The position numbers were made by a program, and so were the translations under genes. From positions 1 to 52,445 of the forward strand of contig MWZA01000167.1 of the NCBI GenBank assembly GCA_002050455.1: a DNA stretch of 52,445 nt, given 5' to 3'. Below, one piece after another: positions 26,286 through 35,686 of this stretch; within the stretch, counting starts at the first letter, position 1; every line of letters begins with the position of its first letter. The notes under the pieces are model-generated. The model did not search any database, had not been told where the DNA came from, and worked only from the letters and a program-made list of their open reading frames with translations. The stretch is from Acidobacteria bacterium 5-1 (GTDB lineage: Bacteria; Acidobacteriota; Blastocatellia; Pyrinomonadales; Pyrinomonadaceae).

Positions 26286-26605
26286 TCAAGTAGTAAAGCG
26301 TTTATTAGTTAAAGTTGTGGACTCGGCGTTTAACGCTGTGCCAAACGGTAAAGTAGTTTGCTTGGAATTTGTGCCAGCCGCCTGATTCGTAATTGTTCTT
26401 GTTCCCAATCTGTCGGGATGGTTGAACTCGGTTGATTCCGCGCCACTCGCGTTGCTGATAGTTGAAAGCATTCCGTCGCCCAGATATGTATAGCTTTTCG
26501 TCCACGTCGGCACGGCATATGTGTATTTGACATATTCCGCCAATGTCGTCCCGCCCAAGTTGGCGTAAAATGTCGTCAGATAGGTCGTATAATTTTGCAC
26601 TAGGG
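26286..26605 (-). pseudogene. Truncated Rhs core-tip relic
   Basis: YANLGGTTLAEYVKYTYAVPTWTKSYTYLGDGMLSTISNASGAESTEFNHPDRLGTRTITNQAAGT..., homologous to 30.3-30.7 kb; stops after NKRFT, no toxin domain. Confidence 0.85.
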
Positions 26606-27295
26606 CGTGGCACGCTCCCCGTGACAATCTAAATCTACATCAAATTCAGAGGTCAAATAGTCACATAGCTCAATGAGTCTCTTTCCGTCTTGAAAAGACG
26701 TGTTTTGCCCATAAAACACTCGACGATACTCACCCTTATCAAGAACTTCCAGTAAGATCACAGGTTCATCCCTGCTTAGTTGAAATTGAGGATCACGGAC
26801 GAGTCCTTTTGGGGTAGTAAGTCGGTTCCTCACCTCGAATAGCACTCTGTTCCAACCAGATTTCGGACTCGCAAGGTGTTCTTTACGAAATCTGATCGGA
26901 TCCAAAGCCCTGTTTATGTCGAAAAAATATGCGTGATTCTCGCTTCCGCTTGAGCGAACGATCAGCGATTTTGCGTCGCCAAGACCACCTAGATTGGTCC
27001 AGAGTCGGAACTCAAATTCCTCGGGTCGGGCGGTTTTCGGAAGCGGAGCCAATCCTAGTTTTTGGGAAATTTTTTTAATGTCTGTTGTAAGACCCTCTTC
27101 GATGAATTCATAAGAATCAATCTCGATGAGGTCGCCACCACTTGGAAGATCGGCATTTACCTGAACACTTTCGTTCGTGTTTCGGTTAACACGCTGATCA
27201 GTGAACAAACAGCCGGATGACAGAAGAATTATAAAAGACGCGATTACAGAAAACAGAACTGATCTCCACATAGATTTGATACCTCGATGACCCAT
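26600..27295 (-). CDS. Lipoprotein, candidate immunity protein of the JAB-type Rhs-CT module
   Basis: Signal peptide with lipobox LLSSGC; directly downstream of the displaced CT. Confidence 0.6.
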   Translation of the reverse strand: MGHRGIKSMWRSVLFSVIASFIILLSSGCLFTDQRVNRNTNESVQVNADLPSGGDLIEIDSYEFIEEGLTTDIKKISQKLGLAPLPKTARPEEFEFRLWTNLGGLGDAKSLIVRSSGSENHAYFFDINRALDPIRFRKEHLASPKSGWNRVLFEVRNRLTTPKGLVRDPQFQLSRDEPVILLEVLDKGEYRRVFYGQNTSFQDGKRLIELCDYLTSEFDVDLDCHGERATP

Positions 27296-27303
27296 ATGGA
27301 ATG

Positions 27304-27573
27304 CTACCTTTGAATCCTACACAAAGCCTTTTTCCCATCGAACACTGCGACTTCTGTCCGCGATACTGTAGCTTCTGGCTTTCCTTTAGACCAGCGCTTG
27401 TCTCCTTCTGATGGTCTAACTTTAGTGTCTGTCGGGTGCGTATGAACAACGAGGGTAGTATAATCTGCCAACCCCCTTATTCGCTTTCTTTCAATTACCC
27501 AGTCATTGAACTCATCACCCATACCATCCTTTATATGTCTTTCCGTTGTACTCGTCCAGTCCATTTTCTTCAA
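27304..27573 (-). CDS. JAMM/JAB-type metalloprotease toxin fragment (C-terminal part of displaced Rhs-CT)
   Basis: VVHTHPTDTKVRPSEGD fits HxHPx7SxxD; in +1 frame relative to the upstream Rhs fragment. Confidence 0.7.
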   Translation of the reverse strand: MKKMDWTSTTERHIKDGMGDEFNDWVIERKRIRGLADYTTLVVHTHPTDTKVRPSEGDKRWSKGKPEATVSRTEVAVFDGKKALCRIQR

Positions 27574-28636
27574 TTCCTCCTATAGAAACCTTGCTATTGC
27601 TAATATAGATTACCCCACCCTGTTCTTTTCCGTTAGGAGCCTCCTCGGATTTGCTATTCTGCGTCTTTTCCCAAAGTTTATCAAAGTAAGGCTTAAGCAA
27701 GGAATAATAGGTTTTAAGATAATGGTTACATACGTCCAAAGTCTTTTTACCTTTGGCTTGTAAACTATTCGCTACCGCCCCGACTCCGCTCAACACTCCA
27801 GACCAACCCTGATCGCCTCTTGAATCACCACTGACGTAACTATTTCCCATCTTTCCGGCGATCACGCTGCCAAAACCTGCCACTACCGCTATTATTCCTA
27901 ATATCAACCCGGCGCGTCTGAAGCCGAAGGCATTCAGCACTTGCGATGCCGCACTTGCTCCTGCACTGATAGCTGACAGTATCCCAGCTATGGTTGCCGG
28001 AGCCGCCAAAACCCCCACAATTGTCACAACTGCCACTATGACGGCTACCGCCACCAATACCCATTTGAACAGTTTTTTGAAAAATCCCCAAAACAATCCG
28101 CTTGGGTCAGTATAATTTATCGGGTCGTTGCCGCAGTAAGCATATAAATTTAAGGTTTGTGGAGAAGCCAGATTTGCCGCACCCATTCCAATTGGGTCAA
28201 CCTGCGTGAATCTACCTTGCTTTGAATCATATGTTCGATTAACCGCATAATCAAGACCTGTCCGTGCGCTTCGGTCGTAAGAGGTAAATCGTTTGTTGGT
28301 TGAAGTTGTTGATTCGGCATTTAACGCTGTTCCAAATGGCAATGTCGTTTGTTCATAAGAGCTACCTGTTGCCTGATTCGTAATCGTTCTTGTTCCCAAT
28401 CTATCAGGATGATTGAACTCCGTGGATTCGCCGCCCGTGCCGTTCGGCGTAATGGTCGAGAGCATACTGTCGCCTAAATAGACATAACTCTTTGTCCATG
28501 TCGGCACATTTACGCCATATTCCGTGTATTCCGAAAGAACCGTTCCGCCGTTTGAAACGTAAATCGTCGCCAGATACGTTATCAAATCGTAAGCTATCAA
28601 TCGGGCATTGCTTGCTCCGTATTGAAAACTCTGCAA
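27515..28636 (-). pseudogene. Displaced Rhs core-tip + pre-toxin TM region + N-terminal part of JAB-like domain
   Basis: NRTYDSKQGRFTQVDPIGMGAANLASPQTLNLYAYCGNDPINYTDPSGLF; ends ...KEQGGVIYISNSKVSIGG...KGWYG*. Degraded Rhs homology extends upstream to ~28775. Confidence 0.85.
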
Positions 28637-28791
28637 CGGCGTTCCGTCATCTCGTCTGACGACTACAAGACGATTCGCCGAATCATATTCAAACCTGAGC
28701 CACGTTACGCCGTCTTTGGATAAGGCGCATGCTTGATTTTACTCCTTCATTGTATTTAAAACCTACAGGTGTAATCCAAATCCCGCAGTAT

Positions 28792-29349
28792 TCATTTTAT
28801 CCACTGCTTAGAATTTACAGACTTATCAACAGATTCCTCTAGTTTGTATAATATATTCAAATCTCTGTTTACAGCTTCGCTCGGATTTGTGGTTTCAACA
28901 CAACCGTGATAGTGACTTACCCTTTTCACGATTTTCCCATCAGAGTATGATATAAAGACAAAGGGGGAATCCGAGAGAACGGGGTTGGAACAATTTTCTC
29001 CCCGAACGTATTTGTCTTTAAGTTTGAAAAACTGCGAGTTTTCGAATAAATGAATCAATTGTTCCAATTGAGATCTATCCAGCTTACTCTCAACCAAGCC
29101 TTTCGTCTTAACATTTTTCTCTCCTTCAAAGACAACTTTCCCCGTGTCATAGATTGAAATCTTGTAAACTGGACATTGACCGAAGCACTCACCAAACCGT
29201 CTATCCAAAACAATGATGGGTTGCTCCAGTTGAAAGGAATTGTTACCTTTTGCTTCGGTGTCTTCGAGCAATGGTCCAGATACACTTGTAGAATTTGAGG
29301 CGCATGCCTGCAGGAATAAGATGATAAATACTAGTATAAACTTAAACAT
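28792..29349 (-). CDS. DUF6438-like lipoprotein, candidate immunity protein for the Rhs zincin toxin
   Basis: Lipobox LFLQAC; RRFGECFGQCPVYKISIYDTGKVVFEGEKNVKTKG; immediately downstream of rhs. Confidence 0.65.
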   Translation of the reverse strand: MFKFILVFIILFLQACASNSTSVSGPLLEDTEAKGNNSFQLEQPIIVLDRRFGECFGQCPVYKISIYDTGKVVFEGEKNVKTKGLVESKLDRSQLEQLIHLFENSQFFKLKDKYVRGENCSNPVLSDSPFVFISYSDGKIVKRVSHYHGCVETTNPSEAVNRDLNILYKLEESVDKSVNSKQWIK

Positions 29350-29369: not shown

Positions 29370-32300
29370 TCAAAAGCACTTCTTACTAATTGTGGAATTG
29401 AAATCCTCGGGGCTTTCTGGGACATTTGAAATCGGCACTCCATTAGCGTCCACAGGATGTGTTATGCCGCTTACAACGTGCCTTAACTCGTGCAGAATGG
29501 TTACCTGCCGCGCCCTCGCAGCATCTCGCGGTCCGCTAGAATAACCACCGACTGTATCCAAAAAGAACTTATCACCCAAATAAATCTTGCCATTGGCTCC
29601 TGCACCTTCGGTTCCCCTTGCTACGCCTCCACCACCACCAATCTTCTCGTTATGTGTTACTTCTCGTCTTTTTTGTATTTTTTCTAAAATGTCTTTAGCA
29701 TCTAATCCCGAAGTACCTTCAATATATTTTTTACAAGCACCTTTGAGCCTCGCCAAAGCACCTGCGACTGCATTGTCTGTTATAATCTGAACTTGACTCC
29801 TCTCCGATCTTTTCCTTCTCTTTTTATCTTTGGTCTGAGCCAAGATATTCGCCACCGCTCCGACTCCACTCAGCACTCCAAACCAACTTGGATCGCGTTC
29901 TGAATCACCACTGACGAACGTATTTCCAATTTTTCCGGCTATCACGCTTCCAAAACCTGCTGCTATCGCTATTAGTCCAAATATCAAACCGGCTTTTTTG
30001 AAGCCAAGCGCATTGAGAACCTGCGATGCCGCATTTGCTCCGGCACTAATTGCTGAAAGTATTCCAACCAGGGTTGCCGGAACCGCCACGATTGTCAGCA
30101 CGGCGACTACGACGGCAATGGCAATCAAAACCCATTTGAATAGCTTCTTGAAAAATCCCCAAAACAATCCGCTTGGGTCGGTGTGATTTATCGGGTCATT
30201 GCCGCAATAAGCGTAAAGATTCAATGTTTGCGGTGAGCCAAGACTTGACGCACCTATCCCAATCGGGTCAACAGAGGTGAATCTACCCTGCTTGGAATCG
30301 TATGTTCGGTTGACCGCATAATCCAAGCCGGTTCTCGCGCTTCTGTCGTAGGAGGTGAATCGCTTGCTCGTTGAAGTTGTGGACTCGGCATTTAAGGCTG
30401 TGCCGAACGGCAATGTGGTTTGTTCATAAGAGCTACCTGTTGCCTGATTCGTAATCGTTCTTGTTCCTAATCTGTCTGGATGATTGAACTCCGTGGATTC
30501 GCCGCCCGTGCCGTTTGGTGTAATTGTCGAGAGTTGACTATCTCCGAGATAAACATAACTCTTTGTCCACGTCGGCACGGCTGATGTGTATTCGTGATAC
30601 TCCGAAAGAGTTGTCCCGCCTAAATTCGCATAAAGAATAGACTCGCCTGAAATGTAATCATAGTTCATCAGCCGTCCGTTTGACGGGCTGTATTGAAATG
30701 CCTGCAAATAAGTTCCGTCATCTCGTTTGACAATGCTCAAGCGATTTGCCGAATCATATTCCATTCTCAGCCAACTTCCGTCTTCAGCTAAAGCACGGGT
30801 TTGATTGCCTGCTACATCGTATTCAAAACCTGCCGTCGTGATGCGGTTTGAGGTTGCGTTATAGGTCAGATTGGCAATACCATCTCTTGGAATCGTCGTA
30901 TTATCCGCCGCCACGCCCGAAGCCGTTACCGATGTGCGATTGCCGTAGCGGTCATAACTATATTGCTGCTGCCACAGATTGCCGCCGTTGCCGCCTTTGG
31001 CTTTCGTCAAACGTCCCAAAGCGTCGTATTCATATTCACGATTCTTGTTATTGTCGAGATTGTTGATGATTTTCGAAAGATGTCCCGTTTTACCATTCAA
31101 GTTACCGACGCTGTTGTTTCGCTGGTAGTCGTAGCTCAAATCCAGCAGAGTCTGCCCACTTCTCTGCACTTTCTGATTTGTAAGCAGTCCCGTCTGCGGG
31201 TCAAAGGTGTAATCTTCATTAACCTGATTTGCTCCCGCCACTCCGATATTTATCGAAGTCGTCTGGTCTGATGCGTTATAGACAATATCTGCGGCTTGCT
31301 GCTGCCCGTCAACCTTCAAAGATGTCAAACGGCTGGCGACATCAAAGGTGTGCTGAACTACTTTGCGCGGACTGCCCGCCGAGCCGTATTGCGCCGGATA
31401 GCGAACATCCGTTACTCGATTGAGCGTGTCATACAAATAACTGGTCGTCATCGGATAACTCTCACGAGAAGCCACAGTTTGCGTGTAATCGCTGACTCTG
31501 CCTTCCGCGTCATAACTGTATTCTTCTTTGACCAGTCCGGGAGATTCTATCTTTTTGATACGTTCCTTGTCGCCCGTCGGCATATATTCATACGTTACGT
31601 TAAAGGCGGCGTTGATTGGCAGATTCGGCTCTCTCGGTCCTGACGAATCGTAAATTACTGCCTGCAAACGATTGAGCGCATCTTCCGCGCCATTGGCAAG
31701 ATTGTAATAAGCAAAGTTTGTTTTAACGCCTCTTGCATCGGTTCTCTGTGTCAAATTTGAGCGCGTGTCGTAAATAAAAGCCTCGCTCCACTGTGCGCCC
31801 GTTTGTCCCGCGCCGACAAATGCGCCCGCCTCGTTCAAAGTAGCGGTTTGCTCGGCAAGTTTTTGGCGCGTCAATCTGCCCAAACTGTCGTATTTGAAGC
31901 GGCGTTGCTGAACGCCCTGTTCGGTTTCGACAAGCCTGCCAACTGTATCGTAATTGTATTTTGTTACCAGACTGCCCGCCGCCAAAACCGAGCCGTTAGC
32001 ATTCGGATTCGGCTCGACGACTTCCGCCAATCTGCCTTGCTGGTCATAACGTCCCCAACGCTCTCGTCCCCAAGCATCCGCTACCCGCATTGTATTGCCG
32101 GGCAGATTCGAGGCTGAATCGGGACGCTGTGTTTCATTATAAAATGCCTGCGAAAAATTTCCGTCAGGTTCAATAACCTTAGTTGTTCTGCCCTGCGTGT
32201 CGTAAATCGTCTCAGTCCACTGCACCGCGTCGCCCGCTCTAAAGGGGCGCGACTGCTTCCAAACCTGTCCGAGTTTGTTGTATCTGGTTTCGACAATATC

Positions 32301-35300
32301 CCAGATATTGTTTGCGCCGAGTGCTTCTTCACGCTTTACCTGTCCCAAGCCGTTCAGATATTTTATGCTCTTTCCGGCAAGATTTCCTCCGGCTTCGTGA
32401 ACTTCTTCCGTTACGGTCATCGCCGCGTCGTCATAAAAATTAGCTGTGTAAGCTCCGGTCGAAGAAGAGGAAATGGTCGGGCGCAGCGTGTAGGAATCAT
32501 ACTGCGCGTTGGAAACATTCCCGTTTGCGTCGGTTGCCTGCGTAACCAAGCCGGTTTCAAATGCGTAAACCGCGCTCGTCGTTACTCTGTCAGGAGAATT
32601 CGGATCGCTTGAGCCGCGCGTCCGCGATTCGGGATAAGCATACTGCGTCGCGCTCGTATATTGGAAACTCATCTGCTGGCAGCACGAAGTCGTCGCCGTA
32701 ACCATATTGCCCGTAATGTCGTAACTTCTTGTTTCGCTTATCTCTCCCGTGTGATTTTGAGCATCCGTATAGTTTTTAACTTTTGTTACATTTCCCCTTG
32801 CCGCGGTGCTTGGGTCATATGCGTTGACTTGCTCATATTCAATACACCATTGGCAAGGGCTTAGCGTAGGCTCATCACAACTAGGGTCTTCCTCCCAAAG
32901 AAGACAGGTGTCGCCGTCTCTCGTTTCGGTTGTGTAAGGGTCGTAAGTATAATCGTGTTGAATAACGCCGGGAGTATTTGCAAGCGGCTGGCTTTGATAA
33001 TTGTCATACTCATATTCCGTCCACGAGGCTTTTGTTCCGTCTGGATTTTCAACTCCCTTCGCCGTTACTAAATTAAAATGGTGTCTGGCAATATAAGACG
33101 GGCTGTTTTCATATTGAGCAACACTGCACCGCATTTTAACTCCCGCATTATCATAATCGCACGAGCGCGTAACTTGATTGAACCTGCCGCCCGTATAATC
33201 ATATTCGGTTGTAACTTTTTGATTGTTTTCATCGTCGAAAACTTCCGTTCTTGACGGACGCGGCGACTCATATTCACCCTGCGCCCAGGTTACGACGGAA
33301 TGGCTGGCTAATTTGAATGTTCCGGTAATATTCGGAATAGTTATTCCATTAGCATCCGGCACGTAAGTTTCATCCTGATAAACAAGCCCGTCCTTATATT
33401 TATCGGGATGGGTGTCGGCAAGCGAACTGTAGTTATAGGCATATTGTCTGCTGACCGCTCCGTTCGGCTGCATAATGGTCGTTACCCGCGGCACAGCATT
33501 CTGTTGAAGATTGTAAGTGGTAACGGCGGAAGCGTCATCCATCCCGTCCCAACTTTCCGTTAAAATCTCGTATGTCGGAGCATCTGACAGATTTATGCCG
33601 TTTGTTCTTCCTGCGTCGTTAGCGGTTGTCAACGGATAATTATAAACGGCTTGTTTGGTCATTTGTCCGGCAGTAATAATTCCTTGCTCTTCGGCACTTG
33701 ACTGCCAATTCATCCCGCGCTGCTCTTGAACTTTCGTGAGCATTCCGTAAGTTGAGTAATACGAGGAATAATCAGACGAATTAGGGTCTGCGCCGCCAAA
33801 CCAATAGCCGGTTCTCGTCGCCGGATAATAAACGGCATCCAAAACCCACGGCGCGTTGTCTCTGACGACTACGCCCGTGCCGTAAGCAAAAGAATAGTTT
33901 AGCGGCAGCTGCCGGTAATGAAACCGCACCAATGTTCGAGTGCGTCGTCCTCCTTCAAATCCGAGTGTTCGCGGAGCGGTAACATTTAACAAATGTCCGG
34001 CTGAATCATAGTTGAAGAAAATAATCCGTCCCATCGTGTCGCTAACGGTTTCGATATTCGGACCTTGATTGTTTTTATAAGTAATGTTGATGTAATTGCC
34101 GTTAGCATCGGTAATTCTTGTCGGATAAACGGCTCCGTTGCCCGAAGCACCGTATAAAATGCTAGTTCCGTTGGGCATATTGACGTTAGCCGTAGAGATA
34201 CCGGAACTCAGCCTCGTGCTGTTATAGTCAATAAAAGTTCCGTCGCTCGTGTGTCCGCTAAAATATGAACCGGTTACCGAACCGGTAAAGCCGTGTCTTG
34301 TTCCGTCGGCATCCACAATCATACTGCCGCCGTTCGCTCCCAAATCCATCACTTTGCCGAAGCCGAGCGACCAGCCCGGAGAAGGAAAGCCGCGGTCAAT
34401 ATCGTAAGTCAACTGCGAGCCTGATTTGTTCCACAGCCGCGAGTTGTAATTCAAGTTCAAAGCCAAATCAATTCCGCGCCCCGGCAGAGAAATTACCGGA
34501 GCCGAGAGTTGAAAATTTCCGCTTCCCGCGCCGTCGTCGGCAGGATGCCCGGGCGGGTTGCCGGGATTGTTGCCCGGGTCATCAAATGATTGCCAGTTTC
34601 CGTCATTCCAACCGCCGTCTTCCGGCAAGTTCAGTTCGGGCGACGAGCCGCTTTCCGTTTCCTTACCGGAATCTTTTGTATTTGATTCGTCGTTATCTTT
34701 TTCCTTAACGCTATCGGATGAACGAGAAGAAATAGTGCGGCTTTCCGATGATTTTAAATTCGATTGCGGGGAATTTCCTGTCGTTGACGGATTAACTGTA
34801 ACTGTTGCCTGCGCCGTTTGATTAGCCCTTTTCACCGTTATGGTAAATGTTCCGGGAATCCGCGCCTTAAAGCGGCTGTCAAGAAGCGGGCGGGCGGCGC
34901 GTCCGCGTCCGGTATCGGAAACCTTCCATTTAAAATCAAGCCCGCTAAGCGGTTCATTTTGTGCGTCGTATCCGATTGCTGAAAAAATGACTTGCTCGCC
35001 TTGATTAACGGTAACCGAGCCGGGCAGAATCTGAATTCTGGCAACAGATGGATTTTGATTGGAACTGCCGGCTGAGAGAAACGCTCCGGCAAACCAGCCG
35101 GGAAAATTAACTGCCCAATCACCGGAAAAGAATCCGAATCTGACATCTTGGGTAAAATTATTTACCGCGCCGACGATTGTTTGCGGTGCTGCCGGAACTG
35201 ATACCGACAGTAAGTTGAAACACAAAACAAAACAGAGAATCCGTGTTATTCGGTGATGTTTATAGATTTGAACGGCTGTTTTTTTTGTCTTGGAAATTGA

Positions 35301-35315
35301 CTTTCTTGAACGCAT
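29370..35315 (-). CDS. Full-length Rhs/YD-repeat protein with N-terminal export signal, Ig-like domain and C-terminal zincin-like metallopeptidase toxin
   Basis: Multiple YD repeats, DPIGIGASSLGSPQTLNLYAYCGNDPINHTDPSGLF core end, C-terminal TILHELRHVVSG. Start Met chosen at MRSRKS; ORF track start 35348. Confidence 0.93.
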   Translation of the reverse strand: MRSRKSISKTKKTAVQIYKHHRITRILCFVLCFNLLSVSVPAAPQTIVGAVNNFTQDVRFGFFSGDWAVNFPGWFAGAFLSAGSSNQNPSVARIQILPGSVTVNQGEQVIFSAIGYDAQNEPLSGLDFKWKVSDTGRGRAARPLLDSRFKARIPGTFTITVKRANQTAQATVTVNPSTTGNSPQSNLKSSESRTISSRSSDSVKEKDNDESNTKDSGKETESGSSPELNLPEDGGWNDGNWQSFDDPGNNPGNPPGHPADDGAGSGNFQLSAPVISLPGRGIDLALNLNYNSRLWNKSGSQLTYDIDRGFPSPGWSLGFGKVMDLGANGGSMIVDADGTRHGFTGSVTGSYFSGHTSDGTFIDYNSTRLSSGISTANVNMPNGTSILYGASGNGAVYPTRITDANGNYINITYKNNQGPNIETVSDTMGRIIFFNYDSAGHLLNVTAPRTLGFEGGRRTRTLVRFHYRQLPLNYSFAYGTGVVVRDNAPWVLDAVYYPATRTGYWFGGADPNSSDYSSYYSTYGMLTKVQEQRGMNWQSSAEEQGIITAGQMTKQAVYNYPLTTANDAGRTNGINLSDAPTYEILTESWDGMDDASAVTTYNLQQNAVPRVTTIMQPNGAVSRQYAYNYSSLADTHPDKYKDGLVYQDETYVPDANGITIPNITGTFKLASHSVVTWAQGEYESPRPSRTEVFDDENNQKVTTEYDYTGGRFNQVTRSCDYDNAGVKMRCSVAQYENSPSYIARHHFNLVTAKGVENPDGTKASWTEYEYDNYQSQPLANTPGVIQHDYTYDPYTTETRDGDTCLLWEEDPSCDEPTLSPCQWCIEYEQVNAYDPSTAARGNVTKVKNYTDAQNHTGEISETRSYDITGNMVTATTSCCQQMSFQYTSATQYAYPESRTRGSSDPNSPDRVTTSAVYAFETGLVTQATDANGNVSNAQYDSYTLRPTISSSSTGAYTANFYDDAAMTVTEEVHEAGGNLAGKSIKYLNGLGQVKREEALGANNIWDIVETRYNKLGQVWKQSRPFRAGDAVQWTETIYDTQGRTTKVIEPDGNFSQAFYNETQRPDSASNLPGNTMRVADAWGRERWGRYDQQGRLAEVVEPNPNANGSVLAAGSLVTKYNYDTVGRLVETEQGVQQRRFKYDSLGRLTRQKLAEQTATLNEAGAFVGAGQTGAQWSEAFIYDTRSNLTQRTDARGVKTNFAYYNLANGAEDALNRLQAVIYDSSGPREPNLPINAAFNVTYEYMPTGDKERIKKIESPGLVKEEYSYDAEGRVSDYTQTVASRESYPMTTSYLYDTLNRVTDVRYPAQYGSAGSPRKVVQHTFDVASRLTSLKVDGQQQAADIVYNASDQTTSINIGVAGANQVNEDYTFDPQTGLLTNQKVQRSGQTLLDLSYDYQRNNSVGNLNGKTGHLSKIINNLDNNKNREYEYDALGRLTKAKGGNGGNLWQQQYSYDRYGNRTSVTASGVAADNTTIPRDGIANLTYNATSNRITTAGFEYDVAGNQTRALAEDGSWLRMEYDSANRLSIVKRDDGTYLQAFQYSPSNGRLMNYDYISGESILYANLGGTTLSEYHEYTSAVPTWTKSYVYLGDSQLSTITPNGTGGESTEFNHPDRLGTRTITNQATGSSYEQTTLPFGTALNAESTTSTSKRFTSYDRSARTGLDYAVNRTYDSKQGRFTSVDPIGIGASSLGSPQTLNLYAYCGNDPINHTDPSGLFWGFFKKLFKWVLIAIAVVVAVLTIVAVPATLVGILSAISAGANAASQVLNALGFKKAGLIFGLIAIAAGFGSVIAGKIGNTFVSGDSERDPSWFGVLSGVGAVANILAQTKDKKRRKRSERSQVQIITDNAVAGALARLKGACKKYIEGTSGLDAKDILEKIQKRREVTHNEKIGGGGGVARGTEGAGANGKIYLGDKFFLDTVGGYSSGPRDAARARQVTILHELRHVVSGITHPVDANGVPISNVPESPEDFNSTISKKCF

Positions 35316-35686
35316 GATTTTTGGTACCTTCGCAAACAAAATATACATACCATACGAAATTGATAGAACAATCGCAAAGAATTTTTCTATTTATTTCTAT
35401 ATTGCAATTGAAAAGTAACAAAACAGTTATATAAATGCAGCTTGTCGCTTCAATAATTAGCAAAATAACTCTGGTTATCTCAAAAGTTTTAATTTCTAGA
35501 AAAAAATCTACGCGAATGTTTATTTTTTCTCTGTATTTCTGAGTAAAAAACTATATCGGAAAGTTATCCATTGTAGTTTTTCAATAAAATACTGTATCTT
35601 GTGTCTTTGCTGCATATTTAGCGGAGCTGTAATTTATGCACAATTTTATTGATACGTTTTGAAGCGGAAAAGAATTATCCACAAGG

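What the first reader, a model, noticed from the sequence alone, without database searches (positions are those of the whole stretch)
29370..35315. Secreted Rhs protein carrying a zincin-like metalloprotease toxin
The protein has an N-terminal export-like segment and Ig-like domain, a long YD-repeat shell and a canonical core end (DPIGIG...LYAYCGNDPINHTDPSGL). A pre-toxin hydrophobic stretch follows, then a ~160-aa C-terminus with TILHELRHVVSG, an HExxH-type zinc motif. Rhs-CT variability is established; this architecture and toxin may be a poorly described variant.
Basis: partly seen in the sequence, partly recalled or inferred. Interest (0 to 1): 0.75.

Follow-up and report, generated by a model that had tools for sequence, protein, structure and literature searches.

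The report
Secreted Rhs toxin with metalloprotease tail
A soil acidobacterium encodes a large exported toxin-delivery protein whose tail belongs to a family of zinc-protease-like domains that I could not match to any named family, followed by a membrane-anchored protein that probably protects the producer; it looks like a weapon acting in the envelope of rival bacteria, a new version of a known kind of weapon.

Summary
Confirmed: a 1992-aa Rhs protein (29370-35348, minus strand) with an export-type N-terminus, an Ig-like module, YD repeats, an Rhs core (E 6e-18) and a 153-aa C-terminus carrying HELRH. The C-terminus matches no Pfam, NCBIfam, PHROGs or PDB sequence, but is not isolated. Profile searches recover a family in Acidobacteriota (29 of 162 Blastocatellia genomes) with the pattern Cys...LLHELxH...PxD...N..I...Cys. 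HExxH is kept in 27 of 30 non-redundant members. Some members are Rhs tails, others stand-alone secreted proteins. A conserved Asp (window D1967) is the likely third zinc ligand. The gene 20 bp downstream is a predicted lipoprotein (DUF6438). In 14 Rhs-tail or cassette-like loci the next gene has an exported-type N-terminus (7 of 30 window genes do), although its family varies. This points to extracytoplasmic action, probably cleavage of an envelope protein. The locus also holds a frameshifted JAB-type orphan cassette and a truncated third core. Catalysis, zinc binding, toxicity and immunity are inferred; both structure models failed. Rhs toxins with zincin tails are known; this family and its immunity partners appear undescribed.

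The parts
29370..35348 (-). Rhs/YD-repeat polymorphic toxin gene, 1992 aa (alternative start at 35315)
35184..35315 (-). export-type N-terminus with long basic n-region and hydrophobic core, ending VPAAP; end approximate
   Evidence: shared with the second Rhs protein of the genome
34776..35042 (-). Ig-like (Big_2-like) module, weakly supported
   Evidence: E 0.0038, below cut-off; conserved in relatives
30165..30410 (-). Rhs-associated core ending in DPSGL
29832..30164 (-). hydrophobic pre-toxin segment, about 80% identical at DNA level to that of the downstream orphan cassette
29373..29831 (-). C-terminal zincin-like domain (aa 1840-1992)
29478..29492 (-). HELRH (H1953, E1954, H1957): predicted zinc-binding and catalytic motif
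29448..29450 (-). D1967, candidate third zinc ligand (PxD motif); H1964 at 29457-29459 is the alternative
29733..29735 (-). C1872, first of the two family-conserved cysteines (partner C1991 at 29376-29378), candidate disulfide
28792..29349 (-). predicted lipoprotein with DUF6438 domain, candidate immunity protein, starts 20 bp after the toxin stop
   Evidence: (E 3.7e-26)
27515..28740 (-). orphan cassette: displaced Rhs core and pre-toxin with a second tail; the frame closes early, and JAB-type residues (HTHP...SEGD) lie in another frame just downstream
   Evidence: JAB similarity weak, (E 0.061)
26600..27295 (-). lipoprotein-like gene after the second tail, candidate immunity protein of that cassette
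26288..26600 (-). third, truncated Rhs core remnant without a tail

Best explanation
This is a polymorphic Rhs toxin exported through the Sec pathway. The YD-repeat shell would enclose the tail, and the core-end motif would mark its release point (inferred from studied Rhs proteins). The tail is a small zincin-like domain in which H1953, H1957 and probably D1967 bind zinc, E1954 activates water, and C1872 and C1991 may form a disulfide. It would act outside the cytoplasm, most likely by cleaving a periplasmic or envelope protein of competing bacteria. The DUF6438 lipoprotein encoded immediately downstream would protect the producer by binding the toxin in the periplasm. Shown here: architecture, family, motif conservation, and the genetic linkage to genes for predicted exported proteins. 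Inferred: zinc binding, proteolysis, toxicity, immunity, target.
For: Rhs core and repeats. Tail family with invariant C, L, H, E, C and near-invariant second H in a 14-row alignment; HExxH in 27 of 30 members; PxD and N..I...C also recur. A profile built without the window and its close relatives recovers the window tail at E 2e-8 and none of 300 shuffles. Best PDB matches of the family profile are serralysin-type metallopeptidases, not significant (E 0.08). Tail-to-lipoprotein linkage is kept: DUF6438 after the window tail and L013, a DUF6438-related lipoprotein after L012, L014 and L015. In 14 Rhs-tail or cassette-like loci the next gene has a hydrophobic exported-type N-terminus, against 7 of 30 window genes (Fisher p 1e-6). 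Orphan core-plus-tail cassettes lie downstream. The precedent VgrG2b is a metallopeptidase toxic in the periplasm with its own immunity protein (PMC6899460).
Against: No usable structure. One close relative has DELRH, one distant Rhs tail HELAR, one relative is a pseudogene. Several members are stand-alone secreted proteins with no Rhs part, so the domain is not always a delivered tail; members L026, L027, L030, L041 and L043 show no clear exported partner. The 14 loci are not independent, and candidates were chosen by eye. DUF6438 is mostly found away from Rhs genes. No outer-membrane export route was identified, and no T6SS sheath gene was found in this 79% complete genome.
Confidence: 0.66

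Rival explanations
1. The tail is a degenerate or inactive zincin-like domain that acts, if at all, by binding rather than by catalysis.
For: DELRH in L013, HELAR in L024, and an HGLKH pseudogene in L015; L013 still has its DUF6438 neighbour.
Against: 27 of 30 members keep HExxH, the window included; inactivating changes are scattered, as expected of decaying toxin copies.
Confidence: 0.12
2. The tail is an ordinary secreted peptidase (nutrition or envelope maintenance) carried on a YD-repeat scaffold, not a weapon.
For: Stand-alone relatives with signal sequences and no Rhs part.
Against: Displaced core-plus-tail cassettes at the locus and in the second Rhs locus of the genome; exchangeable tails behind a common core; an exported partner gene directly after most Rhs-borne tails.
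Confidence: 0.1
3. The tail is a toxin directed mainly at eukaryotic predators or competitors of soil bacteria, not at bacteria.
For: Zincin toxins against eukaryotes are common in general (own knowledge).
Against: A dedicated exported partner gene next to the tail suggests self-protection, hence a bacterial target.
Confidence: 0.07

Closest known systems
Tox-MPTase1-5 and Tox-HopH1 zincin-like tails of Rhs and other polymorphic toxins (PMC3482391)
   Same: small HExxH domain at the C-terminus of Rhs-repeat proteins
   Different: no Pfam or NCBIfam model reaches the tail even at E 10; the paper's table lists no immunity protein for these families, whereas here an exported partner gene is adjacent
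VgrG2b C-terminal domain with PA0261 (DUF4157-type gluzincin; PMC6899460)
   Same: HExxH metallopeptidase acting in the periplasm, with a cognate immunity protein
   Different: carried by a T6SS spike; third ligand is Glu on a later helix; DUF4157/eCIS-type family, which the window tail does not match
eCIS_core (DUF4157) tail of the second Rhs protein in the same genome (L078, contig C134)
   Same: same N-terminal module and export type, zincin tail, lipoprotein-like gene downstream
   Different: different zincin family (PF13699 E 5e-11)
Serralysin-type metzincins (e.g. PDB 1go8)
   Same: best, non-significant match of the family profile around the HExxH helix (E 0.08)
   Different: no HExxHxxGxxH signature in the window; Asp rather than His is the recurrent downstream residue

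Membership tests
Rhs polymorphic toxins | YD/RHS repeats | tested here: met
   PF05593 E 2.4e-17
Rhs polymorphic toxins | Rhs-associated core ending PxxxxDPxGL before a variable tail | tested here: met
   TIGR03696 E 5.8e-18; PINHTDPSGL
Rhs polymorphic toxins | different tails behind similar cores, orphan cassettes | tested here: met
Rhs polymorphic toxins | toxic tail neutralised by a cognate immunity protein | not testable with these tools
   only adjacency and predicted export of the partner
Zincin-like metallopeptidases | HExxH conserved across the family | tested here: met
   27 of 30 members
Zincin-like metallopeptidases | third zinc ligand | tested here: inconclusive
   PxD Asp recurs in most members (window D1967), but Glu in L012/L014 and absent in L013
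Zincin-like metallopeptidases | zincin fold | tested here: inconclusive
   AlphaFold2 pLDDT 38; no significant PDB sequence match
Tox-MPTase1-5 / Tox-HopH1 | match to a known model | tested here: not met
   no Pfam or NCBIfam family up to E 10 for the tail; I did not verify that every one of these families has its own model in those libraries
PVC/eCIS metallopeptidase (DUF4157) | HExxHxxQ...E signature and PF13699 match | tested here: not met
   HELRHVVS has no Q at that position; no PF13699 match
Metzincins | HExxHxxGxxH/D spacing and Met-turn | tested here: not met
   window is HELRHVVSGITHPVD: His at +11 and Asp at +14 from the first His, not +10; Met-turn not tested
T6SS-delivered Rhs effectors | PAAR/prePAAR N-terminus and a T6SS in the genome | tested here: not met
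   no PAAR-type family match; export-type N-terminus instead; no VipB match in this 79% complete genome

The most novel reading that the evidence does not exclude
The tail founds a family of compact, disulfide-stabilised zincins with an Asp third ligand, used across Acidobacteriota both as Rhs-delivered periplasmic toxins and as stand-alone secreted enzymes. Unrelated exported proteins (DUF6438, BNR propellers, WG-repeat and TonB_C proteins) have been recruited independently as their inhibitors, giving the DUF6438 members beside these tails a first function.
Probability: 0.42. Interest if true: 0.58.

Novelty: new variant of a known kind. Interest (0 to 1): 0.42.

Why it matters
Acidobacteriota are abundant in soil, yet my literature searches returned no paper on contact weapons of this family. 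A zincin family without a database model, with conserved genetic linkage to exported partner genes, gives a testable toxin-immunity pair and a first functional hypothesis for some DUF6438 proteins. The variety of partner families would also be a useful case of repeated recruitment of periplasmic inhibitors. The general principle, a metallopeptidase tail on an Rhs scaffold, is already known.

Tried and rejected
Both are unusable, so no fold search was run. Relatives found by the genome search were not handed to the predictor because its stated rule does not list them. Viral, phage and plasmid collections gave no relative, so distribution outside Acidobacteriota was not established. PDB sequence searches gave only non-significant matches. 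PADLOC and PHROGs: nothing. Metzincin, DUF4157 and T6SS-effector membership were considered and rejected on tested features. DUF6438 as an exclusive Rhs immunity family was rejected: most of its members in relatives are not beside Rhs genes. For one Pfam scan I read the frameshifted second tail across its two frames; the JAB match was below threshold. Literature: no paper in the held library mentions DUF6438; searches for acidobacterial Rhs toxins gave only general work.

Full report
The window is contig C158 of a 3.2 Mb draft genome (79% complete). Named relatives from the same searches are Pyrinomonadaceae, Blastocatellia and Acidobacteria genomes assembled from metagenomes, and the window's genome lies in the same family as most of them.

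It has RHS repeats (E 2.4e-17) and an Rhs-associated core (E 5.8e-18) ending in PINHTDPSGL, the boundary motif described for Rhs proteins (PMC8636562). The N-terminus looks like a signal peptide with a long basic n-region, and the same module opens the genome's second Rhs protein at 52% identity. The Ig-like assignment is weak (Big_2 E 0.0038). No T6SS sheath gene was found in this genome, so Sec export is more likely than T6SS loading; how the protein crosses the outer membrane is unknown.

The tail (29373-29831) matches nothing in Pfam, NCBIfam, PHROGs or by sequence in the PDB. Single-sequence search finds four relatives at 34-39% identity in the family. Iterating with alignments extends this to 29 of 162 Blastocatellia genomes and 19 of 396 genomes sampled across the phylum. 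The 30 non-redundant members share a cysteine near the start, LLHELxH, a downstream PxD, and N..I...C near the end. In the 14-row alignment C33, L113, H114, E115 and C152 are invariant and H118 nearly so. As a partial hold-out, a profile built from distant members only recovers the window tail at E 2e-8 and none of 300 shuffles; the members had first been collected with profiles that included the window, so this is not fully independent.

The motif is not universal. L013, the closest Rhs homologue with the same partner gene, has DELRH; L024 has HELAR; L015 is a pseudogene with an internal stop and HGLKH. The third ligand is probably the PxD aspartate, D1967 in the window. It recurs in most members, is Glu in L012 and L014, and is absent in L013. 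H1964 is an alternative.

The neighbour at 28792-29349 begins 20 bp after the toxin stop and is a predicted lipoprotein with a DUF6438 domain (E 3.7e-26; lipobox FLQAC). L013 also has DUF6438 directly downstream. L012, L014 and L015 have a lipoprotein that Pfam does not call, but it is linked to DUF6438 through L071. More distant tails are followed by BNR/YCF48-like, WG-repeat, TonB_C and unassigned proteins. All 14 listed partners have an exported-type N-terminus, against 7 of 30 window genes. These loci are not independent and were picked by inspection; five other members had no clear exported partner. The pattern still favours an extracytoplasmic site of action, and the conserved cysteine pair agrees with that. 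DUF6438 itself is widespread and mostly unlinked to Rhs genes, so only the members beside these tails are proposed as immunity proteins.

Downstream of the pair lies an orphan cassette: core and pre-toxin DNA about 80% identical to the main gene with a different tail, whose frame closes early while JAB-type residues continue in another frame. A lipoprotein-like gene follows (26600-27295), then a third core remnant. The relatives L013, L012 and L015 also carry JAB-like tails or fragments near the zincin tail. The second Rhs locus of the genome (C134) has a full-length protein with a DUF4157/eCIS-type zincin tail and two further cassettes. Both full-length Rhs proteins of this genome therefore end in HExxH-type or related zincin domains of different families.

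Mechanism. I judge an antibacterial metallopeptidase tail acting in the periplasm most likely (0.66), by analogy with VgrG2b, a metallopeptidase that is toxic in the periplasm and neutralised by a cognate immunity protein (PMC6899460). Zincin-like tails on Rhs proteins were catalogued in 2012 (PMC3482391), so the kind is known. What appears new is the family, its occurrence both as Rhs tails and as stand-alone secreted proteins, and its partner genes. Structure prediction failed for want of an eligible deep alignment, so the fold, zinc binding and activity remain unproven.

Noticed in passing
window 27370-28740 (-): Orphan Rhs core with a second tail whose frame closes early; JAB-type metal-site residues (HTHP...SEGD) follow in another frame. 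JAB-like tails or fragments also lie near the zincin tail in L013, L012 and L015.
   Followed up: partly
L078 (contig C134 of the same genome): Second Rhs locus: full-length protein with the same N-terminal module and a DUF4157/eCIS-type zincin tail, plus two orphan cassettes, one followed by a small protein without a signal sequence.
   Followed up: partly
L032, L037-L040, L042, L044-L048: Stand-alone proteins with export-type N-termini, the same Cys...HELGH...PNDG...N...C pattern and no Rhs part; role unknown.
   Followed up: partly
L024, L028, L036, L049: YCF48/BNR-type beta-propeller proteins, lipoprotein-like or secreted, directly after zincin tails: candidate immunity proteins (the one from L024 also weakly resembles Tli3, E 0.002).
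   Followed up: partly
L013 3298-3933: Relative whose tail has DELRH instead of HExxH but keeps its DUF6438 partner gene.
   Followed up: partly
L099: The same locus of G229 carries two different members of the tail family in successive Rhs fragments.
   Followed up: no
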